Below are positions 26,462 through 31,434 of a DNA stretch of 38,414 nucleotides, in pieces. The notes beneath the pieces were generated by a model that worked only from the letters and a program-made list of their open reading frames with translations, searched no databases and was not told where the DNA came from. The stretch lies in NCBI GenBank assembly GCA_002711125.1, contig PAHN01000012.1:113587-152000 (forward strand). Reading direction: 5' to 3'. The translations under genes were made by a program, and so were the position numbers. The DNA comes from Flavobacteriales bacterium (GTDB lineage Bacteria; Bacteroidota; Bacteroidia; Flavobacteriales; BACL11). The number at the start of each line of letters is the position of its first letter. Position 1 is the first letter of the stretch.

Positions 26462-29278
26462 ATGCGTATATTATCATTGTTTCTAATACAATTATTTTGT
26501 TCTATTTCTCTGTATTCTCAGACATACGACACCTTATCTATTTGTAATGGTGATAGTGTTTTTATTTATAATAATTGGCAATCACAAAACGGAGTGTACT
26601 CTGATGGTTTTAACTTTACGACACTAATAGTAAATCCTACACCTAATTTAACTGGTAGTTTTATTCTTAATGGCAATGCTACTCAACCAATACCTAATAC
26701 ATATGATTTAACTCAACCAATAGGAAATCAATCAGGTTCAGCTTGGAATAGTGTAACATTAAATCTTACGCAGCCTTTTAGTTTTGATGTAGATATGTTT
26801 TTTGGCTATAATAATGGTGGTGCTGATGGTATTGCATTTTTATTACAACAGGTAAATACAAGTGTTGGTACGAGTGGGGGAGGCTTGGGCTATCAAGGTA
26901 TATCTCCTTCATTTTGTATAGAATTTGATACTTGGAGAAACTCAAACAATTCAGATCCATATTATGATCATATTGCTGTCCAAAAAAATGGTAATTTAAA
27001 TCATTCAAGTACAAATAATTTACTAGCACCTGTGGGTTTCCCTCCAAACAATTTAAATATTGAAAATGGACAATGGCATAATGTGGTTTTTACATGGGAT
27101 CCAAATATGTTTAATTTTAAGGTTTATTTTAATGGTATAGTTGTTGTGAATTATTATGGTGATATTGTTTCTGATATTTTCGCAAATAATCCCAACGTAT
27201 ATTGGGGTTTTACTGCTGCAACAGGTGGAGCAAATAATTTACAGAGTTTTCGTGTGAACTCTTTAGGTATTCAATTAACAGATATAACTATATGTAGTGA
27301 AGATACTATTCAGATAGATCCGCAAATAAATAGTAGTATTTATTCATATTTATGGACGCCTAATCATAATATTATTGATAATACAGTTCCTCTTCCTTTT
27401 ATTTTTCCTAATACAACTACAAATTATTCATTTCAAGTTACAAATAGTTATGGTTGCTCATATTATGATTCATTAACCGTATATGTTAATCAACAGACAT
27501 CAACCTTTTTAGACTTAGCTGTATGTAGTTCTTATGTTTGGCCATTAAATGGAAATACATATCAAGCTCCGGGTATTTATACTAATATAAGTATTAATAC
27601 TGATGGATGTGTTCATACTGACTCTCTAAATCTGACTATAGCTAGTGGTGGATGTATTGATCCTCTGGCGTGTAATTATGATTCTTTAGCAATGTGTGAT
27701 GATGGATCATGTATATATAATAGTGGAAATCCAATAATTATAAGTACTTGTAATGGACTAAGTGAAGGAGGAATAGGTGTTAGTGTTTCTCCTTTTGTAG
27801 CAAATAACAACTATTCTTTTACCATAGATAATTCTTCTTTTTTTAATTATGATGATACTGTTAGTAATTTATCTGCTGGTTTTTACAGTTTTGAATTTTT
27901 TATAAACAATATAAGTTGTGGAATACAAACTGTAGAGGTTACTAATTATTCTGCAATTAATTATACATTAAATACTATTAATGAAACATGCTCTGGTTCA
28001 TCTGATGGAGTTGCATATGTAAATATGCAAGGAGGAAGTACACCAAATGGAACTATTTCTAATTTATCGTATTGTTCATCAAATCCTAATTCTAATTTTA
28101 TAAATACTCCGCAAACAATAATTGAAGGTGTTCAATTGTTCGGAGATAACTTTTCTATTAATAATAATACGCAGTTATCTGCTGATTTTTACGAAGACTA
28201 TACAGCTTCATTTTATGCTGATATTTCACCAAATCAAACTTATACAATTAATGTTACATTAGGAAATATGGGATTTTCTGCTTATGATCCTGAAGCTGTA
28301 AATGTTTATATAGATTTTAATATTGATGGAGATTTTATAGATCCTGGAGAGGATCTTGGCGTTATTTTGATTCCATCTGGAACTTGGGTTACTAATACTA
28401 TTTATCCTTTTACATTTACAGTGCCTGGTAATGTGAGTTTTGGACCAACAAGAATGCGGGTTGTATGTATGAGTAATGCTGGAGGAGCAAGTATTAACAT
28501 GGGGCCTTGTGAAAATCCAATTGGTTTTGGAACACCTTGGTTTGGAGCCACAGAAGATTATTCTTTAGTAATTAACAATAGTGTTGCTTGTTCATATTTG
28601 TGGTCTAATGGTGGTTTGTCAGACAGCATTTACGGTCTCTCTACTGGAACATATGATGTTTCAATTATAGATCAAAATGGTTGTATTTCTAATGAATCTG
28701 TATTTATTGATACTAATTATAACATAGCAGTCTCCGCAAGTCAGGATCAAATTATATGTCATTCAGGTTCTGCAAGTCAACTAACAGCAACTTCAAATTA
28801 TAATGGTAATTACAGCTGGTTTCCTCCAACTTCTTTTATTAACCCTAATGTTCAAAATCCTGTTATTTCATCTAATTTAATAGCAACAACTACATTTGTT
28901 GTTACTTTGCTAGATAATAATGGTTGTTCTGCTATGGATTCAGTTACGGTCTCTGTAAACCCAATACCAAGTGTTACAATTTCAGCCATTCCTAATCCAG
29001 CGTGTCAAAATGATACAATTCAATTAATTGCCTCTACATCCTTCCCACTTAATCTATTTAGATTTCAGTATAACGAAGGAAATGGTTGGCAGAATATTAT
29101 AACTACTAATAATGGAGGGTGGGGTAATATAAATCCCCAATTTTTTAATAATATTACAACAATAACTCAATTTCGTGTTAAAGTAAGAGAAGGATGGGGG
29201 TGTACGGTAAGTCCTTGGTCTCCAAATATTAGTATTCCAATTAATATTATAAATACACCATTAATAAGTCATAATTAA
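26462..29278 (+). CDS. Large secreted multidomain adhesin-like protein (L-type lectin, SprB-like and GEVED domains)
   Basis: A 938-residue exported protein with a signal peptide (MRILSLFLIQLFCSISLYSQ). Domains in order: an L-type (legume-like) lectin-fold region (about 60-272, with GGADGIAFLLQQ and FCIEFDTWRN); an Ig/PKD-like domain (about 273-343); a Cys-rich segment (about 397-417, DPLACNYDS, CDDGSC); an Ig-like region; an SprB-type repeat (about 502-750) that contains an inserted GEVED domain (about 528-708, YIDFNIDGDFIDPGED, GATEDYSLVI); and two more Ig-like domains (about 753-833 and 836-930). There is no T9SS tail; it ends INTPLISHN. The first of three adjacent secreted-protein genes. 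A surface carbohydrate-binding role is likely but inferred. Confidence 0.82.
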   Translation: MRILSLFLIQLFCSISLYSQTYDTLSICNGDSVFIYNNWQSQNGVYSDGFNFTTLIVNPTPNLTGSFILNGNATQPIPNTYDLTQPIGNQSGSAWNSVTLNLTQPFSFDVDMFFGYNNGGADGIAFLLQQVNTSVGTSGGGLGYQGISPSFCIEFDTWRNSNNSDPYYDHIAVQKNGNLNHSSTNNLLAPVGFPPNNLNIENGQWHNVVFTWDPNMFNFKVYFNGIVVVNYYGDIVSDIFANNPNVYWGFTAATGGANNLQSFRVNSLGIQLTDITICSEDTIQIDPQINSSIYSYLWTPNHNIIDNTVPLPFIFPNTTTNYSFQVTNSYGCSYYDSLTVYVNQQTSTFLDLAVCSSYVWPLNGNTYQAPGIYTNISINTDGCVHTDSLNLTIASGGCIDPLACNYDSLAMCDDGSCIYNSGNPIIISTCNGLSEGGIGVSVSPFVANNNYSFTIDNSSFFNYDDTVSNLSAGFYSFEFFINNISCGIQTVEVTNYSAINYTLNTINETCSGSSDGVAYVNMQGGSTPNGTISNLSYCSSNPNSNFINTPQTIIEGVQLFGDNFSINNNTQLSADFYEDYTASFYADISPNQTYTINVTLGNMGFSAYDPEAVNVYIDFNIDGDFIDPGEDLGVILIPSGTWVTNTIYPFTFTVPGNVSFGPTRMRVVCMSNAGGASINMGPCENPIGFGTPWFGATEDYSLVINNSVACSYLWSNGGLSDSIYGLSTGTYDVSIIDQNGCISNESVFIDTNYNIAVSASQDQIICHSGSASQLTATSNYNGNYSWFPPTSFINPNVQNPVISSNLIATTTFVVTLLDNNGCSAMDSVTVSVNPIPSVTISAIPNPACQNDTIQLIASTSFPLNLFRFQYNEGNGWQNIITTNNGGWGNINPQFFNNITTITQFRVKVREGWGCTVSPWSPNISIPINIINTPLISHN

Positions 29279-29311
29279 AATAAATAATAATATTCTATTA
29301 AATTAAAAACA

Positions 29312-30157
29312 ATGAAAACAATAAAAACAATGAAACTAAAATTATTAAAGATGCTACTAGTTTACTTTTGTTTCTTTAGTATCGAATGCGAAGCCCAAAC
29401 AAGTACATCGCCAACTCAAGATGTATGTGTTGGCTCAACTGAACCGTATTTATTAAATCCATCAACTAGTACATCAACATACCAATGGACCTTATCTGGA
29501 GGAGGAGTTATTTCTTCTGGTCAAGGAAGTGGTTCCATATTAATTGATTGGAATGCTAATTCGGGAGGTCCTTATACTCTTACTGTTGTAGAAACTGATT
29601 TAAATGGATGTGTAGGTCCACCAAAGACTGTAGATGTCACATTATATGATCTTGATAATGCAACTTTTGTACTTACAGATTTTTGTGAAGGGTCTTCAAA
29701 TTCTGCATCATCAATTATTACATCAGGAGGTGTTTTTTCTTTTAATCCCATTCCTACAAATGGAGAGACAATAGATTCTATTACTGCAGAAATTACAGGT
29801 GGAATTGCAGGTAATACATATTTTATAGAGTATATTACTAATGGAATGTGTCCACAACAACATATTGAATCAGTTTCCGTAAATAATTTAGATGACGCAT
29901 CATTTTTACTTAGTGATTATTGTGCAGGTTCTCCTAATTCTGCTACTGCCATATCTACTCCAGGTGGAGTATTTACATTTAATCCAATACCGACTAGTGG
30001 AGAGACAATAAATTCGTTGACGGGTGAAATTACAGGAGGTGTACCTGGAAATACTTATACTGTAGAGTATACGACTTCAGGAACATGTTCTTCTTCTCAA
30101 ATTGAAAGTGTTTTAATTTATTCAATACCTTCAACAGGACCAATTTTTCATAATTAA
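29312..30157 (+). CDS. Secreted protein with PKD-like domain and two tandem Ig-like repeats, no sorting domain
   Basis: A 281-residue exported protein. A signal peptide (ending CEAQ at about 29; ATG at 29312 or 29330) is followed by a PKD/Ig-like domain (about 30-111, CVGSTEPYLLNPS, SGGPYTLTVVETD). Two tandem copies of a repeat of about 79 residues follow at 112-190 and 191-269 (FSFNPIPTNGETID versus FTFNPIPTSGETIN). The protein ends with STGPIFHN. There is no T9SS type A or B domain. It lies 33 bases after the lectin-GEVED gene and two bases before the T9SS type B gene, so it is probably co-transcribed with both. Its C-terminal HN matches the upstream protein. Function unknown; a structural surface component is the reasonable guess. 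Confidence 0.78.
   Translation: MKTIKTMKLKLLKMLLVYFCFFSIECEAQTSTSPTQDVCVGSTEPYLLNPSTSTSTYQWTLSGGGVISSGQGSGSILIDWNANSGGPYTLTVVETDLNGCVGPPKTVDVTLYDLDNATFVLTDFCEGSSNSASSIITSGGVFSFNPIPTNGETIDSITAEITGGIAGNTYFIEYITNGMCPQQHIESVSVNNLDDASFLLSDYCAGSPNSATAISTPGGVFTFNPIPTSGETINSLTGEITGGVPGNTYTVEYTTSGTCSSSQIESVLIYSIPSTGPIFHN
29645..30118 (+). repeat. Tandem coding repeat, two units of 237 bases
   Basis: Two in-frame copies (29645-29881 and 29882-30118) encode near-identical 79-residue Ig-like modules. They share FNPIPT-GETI, EITGG and NTY-EY-T-G-C at matching positions. The nucleotide sequences have diverged at many third positions, so the duplication is not recent. Confidence 0.75.
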
Positions 30158-30159
30158 TT

Positions 30160-31434
30160 TTGTTGAGAATAACTATTATATTTTTATTTTCTCTAGTATC
30201 GTTTCTTTACACGTATGCTGAAGATACTATTTATGTTTGTACTGGAACAATACATGAATTTGGAGTTCCTCTTTCAAATGGATCAACTTATTTTTGGGAG
30301 GTAGATAATTCTTCTGCAAATATTGTTGCTGGAAATAGCACTGAATTAGTTTCTATACAAATAAATAGTCCTGACATATTTAAATTATTTGTTACTGAAA
30401 CTGATATAAATGGATGTATAGGTTTTGATAGCATTGTAATAGTTAGCTATCCATTGCCAAATCCAATAATCAGTGCTGATGAAGTTACCTTTTGTGATGG
30501 TGACAGCATTCTTATTGAATTAAATTTTGATTCTTCTTTTAATTCATTTTTATGGAATAACAACGATATAGAATCTTATACATATGTATCAAGTTCTGGA
30601 AGTTTTTTTGTAACAGTAATTGATACTAATGGCTGTTCAAAAAGTAGTAATATCATTGATGTTGATGTTTATTCTGATATAGTTGTAGATTTTTCTATTA
30701 TTGGTACTTGTGTCGATCAACCTAGTTTGTTTATTAATCAATCCATGTATAATCTTGGACAATTATCTCAAATTAACTGGGATATTAATGGGAATTATTT
30801 TAGTGGAGATTCTGTTTTTTATGTTTTTGATAAAGAAGGAATATATAATGTGTCTTTAAATATTCAAACCAATGATGCATGTTTTGATTCTATATCCAAA
30901 TTAATAACAATACACGATAATCCTATAGCTGATTTCACCTACACTCCAAAAGATGTTTCAATATTAAATCCACAGGTTAATTTTTTCAATAACACTATAA
31001 ACGCATTACCATTATATTGGGACTTTGGAGATACTTATTATGATGTGTCAGTAAATCCTATACATACGTATAATAATCCAGGTATATATAATGTTTTATT
31101 GGTTGTTGAAGACTTGAATCAGTGTGTAGATTCAATTTATAAAGAAATAATAATTTATTATGATTTTATTTTGCATGTTCCTAATGCATTTACTCCAAAT
31201 AACGATTCAGATAATGATGTCTTTTTTATAGAAGGTGTAAGAATGGAAAAATATCAATCGTTTGAATTGATAATTTTTAATAGTTGGGGTGAAAAGATTT
31301 ATCAAACTGATGATATAAATAATTATTGGGATGGGGGTAATCATCCTGAAGATGTTTATACATGGCTTATTATAATTAAAGATGAATTAGGTCAAATAAG
31401 AACAAAAAATGGTATAGTAAACTTGTTAAGATAG
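30160..31434 (+). CDS. Secreted PKD-domain protein with gliding-motility-associated (T9SS type B) tail, TTG start
   Basis: A 424-residue exported protein. The signal peptide (MLRITIIFLFSLVSFLYTYA) begins at TTG 30160 (or the TTG at 30163); no ATG is available before the mature part and an in-frame stop lies just upstream, so a TTG start is required. Ig-like domains follow (about 22-100, 100-170), then a PKD domain (about 250-332, with YWDFGDTYYDVS, HTYNNPGIYNVLLVVED). The C-terminal domain (about 335-424) is the type B sorting domain: VPNAFTPNNDSDNDVF, FNSWGEKIYQTDD, YWDGG and DVYTWLIIIKD. It is the only member of the three-gene run with a recognisable T9SS signal. It ends one base before the convergent lolA-like gene's stop. 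Confidence 0.87.
   Translation: MLRITIIFLFSLVSFLYTYAEDTIYVCTGTIHEFGVPLSNGSTYFWEVDNSSANIVAGNSTELVSIQINSPDIFKLFVTETDINGCIGFDSIVIVSYPLPNPIISADEVTFCDGDSILIELNFDSSFNSFLWNNNDIESYTYVSSSGSFFVTVIDTNGCSKSSNIIDVDVYSDIVVDFSIIGTCVDQPSLFINQSMYNLGQLSQINWDINGNYFSGDSVFYVFDKEGIYNVSLNIQTNDACFDSISKLITIHDNPIADFTYTPKDVSILNPQVNFFNNTINALPLYWDFGDTYYDVSVNPIHTYNNPGIYNVLLVVEDLNQCVDSIYKEIIIYYDFILHVPNAFTPNNDSDNDVFFIEGVRMEKYQSFELIIFNSWGEKIYQTDDINNYWDGGNHPEDVYTWLIIIKDELGQIRTKNGIVNLLR

What the first reader, a model, noticed from the sequence alone, without database searches (positions are those of the whole stretch)
26462..31434. Three-gene secreted set in which only the last protein has a sorting tail and the first two share a C-terminal HN
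The lectin-GEVED protein ends INTPLISHN and the repeat protein ends STGPIFHN; neither has a T9SS domain, while the third has a type B tail. All three have their own signal peptide and lie 33 and 2 bases apart. The shared ending at the edge of an Ig-like domain looks like a conserved terminus, not chance. The first two may be carried to the surface by, or assemble with, the type B protein, or HN may mark a short tail not yet described.
Basis: partly seen in the sequence, partly recalled or inferred. Interest (0 to 1): 0.58.

Follow-up and report, generated by a model that had tools for sequence, protein, structure and literature searches.

The report
Split surface adhesin with docking tails
Three neighbouring genes of a marine bacterium appear to encode one cell-surface fibre cut into three chains, the first two of which end in a short conserved tail that probably plugs into the front of the next chain, so that all three can hang from one exported anchor.

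Summary
The trio sits between the same neighbours in relatives from 10 genera of the window's GTDB family (f1) and in a second family (f9). In f1 every readable first protein (P1, 23 of 23) and second protein (P2, 26 of 26) ends I-x-H-[N/Y/W/F]. In f9 the tail varies (PIIHN, PPPIISN, PGPIIFN). The terminal domains of P1 (4 classes) and P2 (5 classes) differ, and the tail stays. In one relative P1's usual last domain lies inside the chain without a tail, and the tail follows the new last domain.

P2 and P3 always begin with related PKD_6-like domains; P1 never does. In f9 genus g32 P1 and P2 are fused and the tail lies at the fusion's end. In g23 a P1-P2-P3-like single chain ends in a type B domain. 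Unfused tails align with the linkers that lead into the next PKD_6 domain.

Best reading: a split type B adhesin. Each tail docks on the next protein's N-terminal domain, and only P3 carries the T9SS signal. AlphaFold models of read-through constructs (11-15 sequences) did not show docking. Export as a complex is inferred.

The parts
26462..29278 (+). P1: secreted protein with L-type lectin, GEVED and Ig-like domains, no sorting domain, ends NTPLISHN
26645..27262 (+). L-type lectin domain of P1 (PF18483, 164.7 bits)
   Evidence: residues 62-267
28298..28567 (+). GEVED domain of P1 (PF20009)
   Evidence: residues 613-702
28970..29251 (+). D1, last Ig-like domain of P1, shared by most P1 relatives
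29252..29275 (+). C-terminal tail of P1, NTPLISHN
   Evidence: conserved at the C-terminus of all readable P1 relatives
29312..30157 (+). P2: secreted protein with N-terminal PKD_6-like domain and Ig-like repeats, no sorting domain, ends STGPIFHN
29405..29599 (+). N-terminal PKD_6 domain of P2, proposed socket for the P1 tail
30131..30154 (+). C-terminal tail of P2, STGPIFHN
30160..31434 (+). P3: type B T9SS cargo, 424 aa, TTG start
30229..30402 (+). N-terminal PKD_6-like domain of P3, proposed socket for the P2 tail
   Evidence: (E 0.0057, below cut-off)
31174..31419 (+). CHU_C / type B sorting domain of P3

Best explanation
The three genes encode one modular T9SS type B surface adhesin that is made as three separate chains. 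Shown: P1 and P2 end in a conserved short tail (core P-I-x-H-[N or aromatic] in f1) that is kept whatever domain precedes it; P2 and P3 start with homologous PKD_6-like domains; the set is present or absent as a unit; and in a second family the same modules occur fused in the order P1-P2 and P1-P2-P3, with a plain linker at the fused junctions and a tail at the C-terminus of the P1-P2 fusion. Inferred: the tail is the former inter-domain linker turned into a docking peptide. P1's tail binds P2's first domain and P2's tail binds P3's first domain, giving a head-to-tail P1-P2-P3 fibre with a variable tip (lectin in the window). Inferred with less certainty: the assembly forms in the periplasm, crosses the outer membrane on P3's type B signal and stays anchored by it.
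For: Tail in 23 of 23 readable P1 ends and 26 of 26 readable P2 ends of f1. Tail independent of the terminal domain: 4 classes in P1, 5 in P2, and the G189 case with D1 internal and tail-less. P2-N profile matches the N-terminus of 27 of 27 P3 and 0 of 27 P1; P3-N profile matches 26 of 27 P2 and 0 of 27 P1; the two profiles match each other with E 1.3e-20. Fusions: g32 P1-P2 in one chain ending TPGAIGF/TPAAIGF before P3, g23 P1-P2-P3-like chain with type B end. Tail residues align with the linkers into the next PKD_6 domain, and in the g23 fusion the PKD_6 match starts at profile position 4, in the linker, against 5-9 in unfused P2/P3 (8 in the g32 fusion). SprA is in the genome.
Against: AlphaFold models of natural in-frame read-throughs gave the tails low confidence and no strand; P3-N is modelled with seven strands, so it is not obviously missing one. 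No PorP/SprF gene adjoins P3. The f9 g23 tails lack the histidine. No binding or localisation data. Part of the tail's conservation may be shared descent, since f1 genomes are related.
Confidence: 0.6

Rival explanations
1. The tail is a new short sorting signal read by a separate factor (a carrier, a chaperone or a translocon part) that exports P1 and P2 on their own, not a docking peptide for the next chain.
For: It is strictly C-terminal, short and independent of the domain before it, as a signal would be. P3 has no carrier gene beside it.
Against: In the own genome only these two genes have it, and in 375 genomes of the class only the window's copy ended a long frame with the strict pattern: a general signal should occur at other loci. 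It does not explain the N-terminal PKD_6 domains on exactly P2 and P3 or the fusions.
Confidence: 0.18
2. Both tails dock directly on P3 (or on one shared third partner), giving a branched complex instead of a chain.
For: P1 and P2 tails resemble each other in f1, as if they shared one receptor.
Against: P2 carries a socket-like first domain too, and the fusions are linear, P1 then P2 then P3.
Confidence: 0.13
3. The tail is an inherited remnant of an inter-domain linker without a function of its own.
For: It aligns with linkers in the fused homologs.
Against: I-x-H and the terminal residue stay fixed in f1 while whole domains are swapped. In the A1 alignment the tail's I and H are among 17 invariant columns of 114. 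A free end without function would drift or be lost.
Confidence: 0.06

Closest known systems
T9SS type B cargo with PorP/SprF carriers (SprB-SprF, PG1035-PorP)
   Same: P3 has the type B domain, and the genome has SprA and PorP-family proteins. Anchoring through PorP-like carriers is from passages of PMC9143113 and PMC12635249.
   Different: P1 and P2 have no sorting domain but a short tail; no PorP-like gene next to P3.
Flavobacterium johnsoniae sprC-sprD-sprB-sprF operon
   Same: Further secreted proteins encoded in one operon with a type B adhesin; SprC moves on the gliding track (passages of PMC12635249). The operon is known to me from reference lines and recall; Rhodes 2011 is not held.
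   Different: No sprF here; whether SprC or SprD have tails or sorting domains was not tested.
Type V (FimA/Mfa1) pili of Bacteroidales
   Same: Chains of a Bacteroidota surface fibre joined by a terminal segment of one subunit in the next (search listing and abstract starts only; mechanism recalled).
   Different: No fimbrillin domain in P1-P3, T9SS type B anchor, three unlike subunits, tail of about five conserved residues; strand exchange was not seen in the models.
GhpA grappling-hook protein of Aureispira
   Same: The eight best PDB matches of the P2-end/P3-start model by E-value (7e-9 to 2e-7) are tandem modules of this Bacteroidota surface protein.
   Different: One giant chain, not a split set (recalled, and from fragment coordinates up to residue 5009); TM-scores are low (0.31-0.35 of the query), so only the module type is alike.

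Membership tests
T9SS type B cargo (P3) | Type B C-terminal domain (PF13585 / TIGR04131) | tested here: met
   60.1 bits against 27 and 39.1 against 35
T9SS type B cargo (P3) | T9SS translocon in the genome | tested here: met
   SprA_N 530 bits, frame of 2369 aa
T9SS type B cargo (P3) | Cognate PorP/SprF gene clustered with it (usual, not always) | tested here: not met
   7 PorP-family matches in the genome, none on this contig
T9SS type B cargo (P3) | Signal peptide | tested here: inconclusive
   Judged by eye from the sequence only
T9SS cargo (P1, P2) | C-terminal sorting domain of type A or B | tested here: not met
   No match in Pfam or NCBIfam
Type V pilin | Fimbrillin domain | tested here: not met
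   No such Pfam match in P1, P2 or P3
Type V pilin | Donor-strand exchange between subunits | tested here: inconclusive
   Read-through AlphaFold models do not show it; shallow alignments
sprCDBF-like gliding operon | Orthology of P1/P2 to SprC/SprD | not tested
   No SprC/SprD sequence was at hand

The most novel reading that the evidence does not exclude
A C-terminal docking tail lets proteins without any T9SS sorting domain ride across the outer membrane on a type B carrier: a hitch-hiker route of type IX secretion and a modular way to swap adhesin tips by swapping a tail-bearing chain.
Probability: 0.4. Interest if true: 0.82.

Novelty: new variant of a known kind. Interest (0 to 1): 0.63.

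Why it matters
T9SS cargo is recognised, in annotation and in the review passages read here, by a C-terminal sorting domain. A tail of about five conserved residues that marks partners without such a domain would add proteins now called 'hypothetical' or 'Ig-like' to the T9SS surface proteome. It would also make co-export of pre-assembled complexes through the translocon testable, and show how a giant adhesin can be cut into exchangeable chains.

Tried and rejected
Chance: rejected. Truncation of longer cargo: rejected, because tails are conserved in many separate genes, although fused homologs exist. A tail belonging to one Ig domain type: rejected by the G189 case and the domain classes. A class-wide tail: the strict pattern (two G/C, any, then P-I-x-H-N-stop) gave 8 places in 375 genomes of the class, and only the window's ended a long frame, the other seven being 3-45 codons. 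In 395 genomes of the order a P-x-I-x-H-[ND]-TAA pattern gave 47 places; 30 were read, and only two, both in f1 genus g3, end long Ig-type proteins (one other frame of 122 codons looks like chance); 17 places were not read. In the 52 genomes of f1 the P-I-W-H-N pattern gave 7 places, six at the trio and one inside another gene. Other type B genes of the own genome: 8 regions read, no such tail on neighbours. Covariation of P1 and P2 tails was looked at by eye only and is not claimed. Read-through AlphaFold models: no docking.

Full report
What is there. P1 (938 aa) has an L-type lectin domain, a GEVED domain and Ig-like domains; P2 (281 aa) a PKD_6 domain and Ig-like repeats; P3 (424 aa) PKD domains and a type B sorting domain. 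P1 and P2 have no sorting domain. All three begin with what looks like a signal peptide, judged by eye. The window is part of a 1.69-Mb genome with SprA, 18 CHU_C matches (15 over the cut-off) and 7 PorP-family matches, none on this contig. Relatives found by name are uncultured marine-type Flavobacteriales and similar records.

The ending is conserved. In the own genome only these two genes end a long frame with I-x-H-[ND] (24 DNA matches). The gene upstream (LysM protein) was found in 41 of 52 genomes of the GTDB family f1, and the stretches after it were read in all 41, the window included. In 22 of the 41 the end of P1 is present, and all 22 have the tail. In 5 the contig ends inside P1. 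In 12 there is no trio at that place. One (G092) is unclear and one (G024) has only a piece of the anchor. G219's P1 end lies on another contig and also has the tail, giving 23 of 23. For P2, 25 readable ends in f1 have the tail. G156's P2 looked different, but its frame is broken in a stretch with ambiguous bases and another frame ends TGPINHW just before P3, giving 26 of 26. G194's P2 is split into several ORFs, and G141's P2 has one residue after HN. P1 and P2 were picked for counting by a tail pattern; the full lists of ORFs show that no complete locus held a P1 or P2 without it, apart from G156. None of the complete f1 loci had only one or two of the three genes.

Second family. In f9, G060 has the same order of genes, with P1 ending TTQPIIHN and P2 NPGQIQHN. 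Four g23 genomes end P1 with PPPIISN, PPPIITN or PPPIVTN and P2 with PGPIIFN or PGPIIYN. So the histidine is not universal; I or V and the terminal N or aromatic are. Over all, [IV]-x-x-[NWYF] holds in 28 of 28 P1 and, with G156, 31 of 31 P2; strict I-x-H-[NWYF] holds in 24 of 28 and 27 of 31.

The tail belongs to the chain end, not to a domain. By mutual BLAST the 85 residues before the last 10 fall into 4 classes in P1 and 5 in P2, all with the tail. In G189 the usual last domain of P1 (D1) is internal and has no tail; another Ig domain follows and then TPPIWHN. P2 tails nearly always hold one aromatic, at the third-last place (PIFHN), the last (PINHW, PIQHF) or the second-last (PIIFN); QIQHN of G060 has none.

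The sockets. A profile of the first domain of P2 matches the N-terminus of 27 of 27 P3 and 0 of 27 P1; a profile of the first domain of P3 matches 26 of 27 P2 and 0 of 27 P1. The two profiles match each other with E 1.3e-20. The 27 of 27 of each profile on its own set is by construction. P1 N-termini are diverse. Related domains also occur inside many of these proteins, so the point is their place right after the signal peptide.

The fusions. In f9 genus g32 (G022, G091) there is no separate P1 and P2 but one chain: the last 240-260 residues of g23 P1 align with its middle (E down to 9e-54), g23 P2 aligns with the part after it, the P2-N profile hits there internally, and the chain ends TPGAIGF or TPAAIGF directly before P3. 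In g23 a chain of 1484-1636 aa upstream of the separate trio aligns with the end of P1 at about 424-534, with P2 from about 512-536 on and with P3 over its last 335 residues or so (40-49% identity), and ends as P3 does. At the fused P1/P2 junction the residues aligned with the tail (such as PPQITSS or PEINFD) lead on to the CFG of the PKD_6 domain. So chains that stop before the type B module carry the tail, and fused junctions carry only a P-x-I-like core as a linker.

Mechanism. The simplest account is a head-to-tail fibre: P1 tail to P2-N, P2 tail to P3-N, and P3 anchored by its type B domain. Type B cargo is carried and anchored by PorP/SprF-like proteins (passages of PMC9143113 and PMC12635249). 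Whether P1 and P2 cross the outer membrane with P3 or join it outside is not shown; no tool here can show it. Two AlphaFold jobs on natural in-frame read-throughs did not show docking: the tails stayed at low confidence. The alignments had 15 and 11 rows and the constructs keep a signal peptide between the partners, so I count this as inconclusive, leaning slightly against a strand-exchange model, all the more since P3-N is already modelled with seven strands. Foldseek places the model nearest to modules of the Aureispira grappling-hook protein.

Literature. Passages of four papers and one review (PMC12635249, PMC9870892, PMC9143113, PMC10994853 and the review PMC10202324) and the listings of searches were seen. 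The review passages name sorting domains of types A, B and C; I saw no short tail of this kind. The library lacks most subscription papers, including Rhodes 2011 on sprC and sprD, which remains the most relevant unread source.

Verdict. The interpretation moves from 'may assemble with the type B protein' to a split type B adhesin with docking tails: tail and split well supported, docking and co-export inferred.

Noticed in passing
window 30160-31434; contig C9 of the own genome: P3 is a type B gene without a PorP/SprF gene beside it; the genome has 7 PorP-family matches against 18 CHU_C matches, none of the 7 on this contig.
   Followed up: partly
L118, after P3 (G254): A further large ORF (1398 codons with stop) follows P3 on the same strand and ends in a type B-like way (...GKLLLQK-type ending, NGQYSYVINVLDD), as if more chains had joined the locus.
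   Followed up: no
L155-L158 (f9 genus g23): A fused P1-P2-P3-like chain and a separate P1, P2, P3 stand side by side, which looks like duplication of the whole module with one copy split or fused.
   Followed up: partly
L106, L107, L109, L110, L113, L114 (genera g8 and g11): In these relatives the place after the LysM gene holds other genes on the opposite strand (a protein of about 320 aa and one of about 790 aa ending SYRIQF or SYRIEF) in place of the trio.
   Followed up: no
P2 tails, all loci: P2 tails nearly always carry exactly one aromatic residue, which shifts between the third-last, second-last and last place (PIFHN, PIIFN, PINHW).
   Followed up: no
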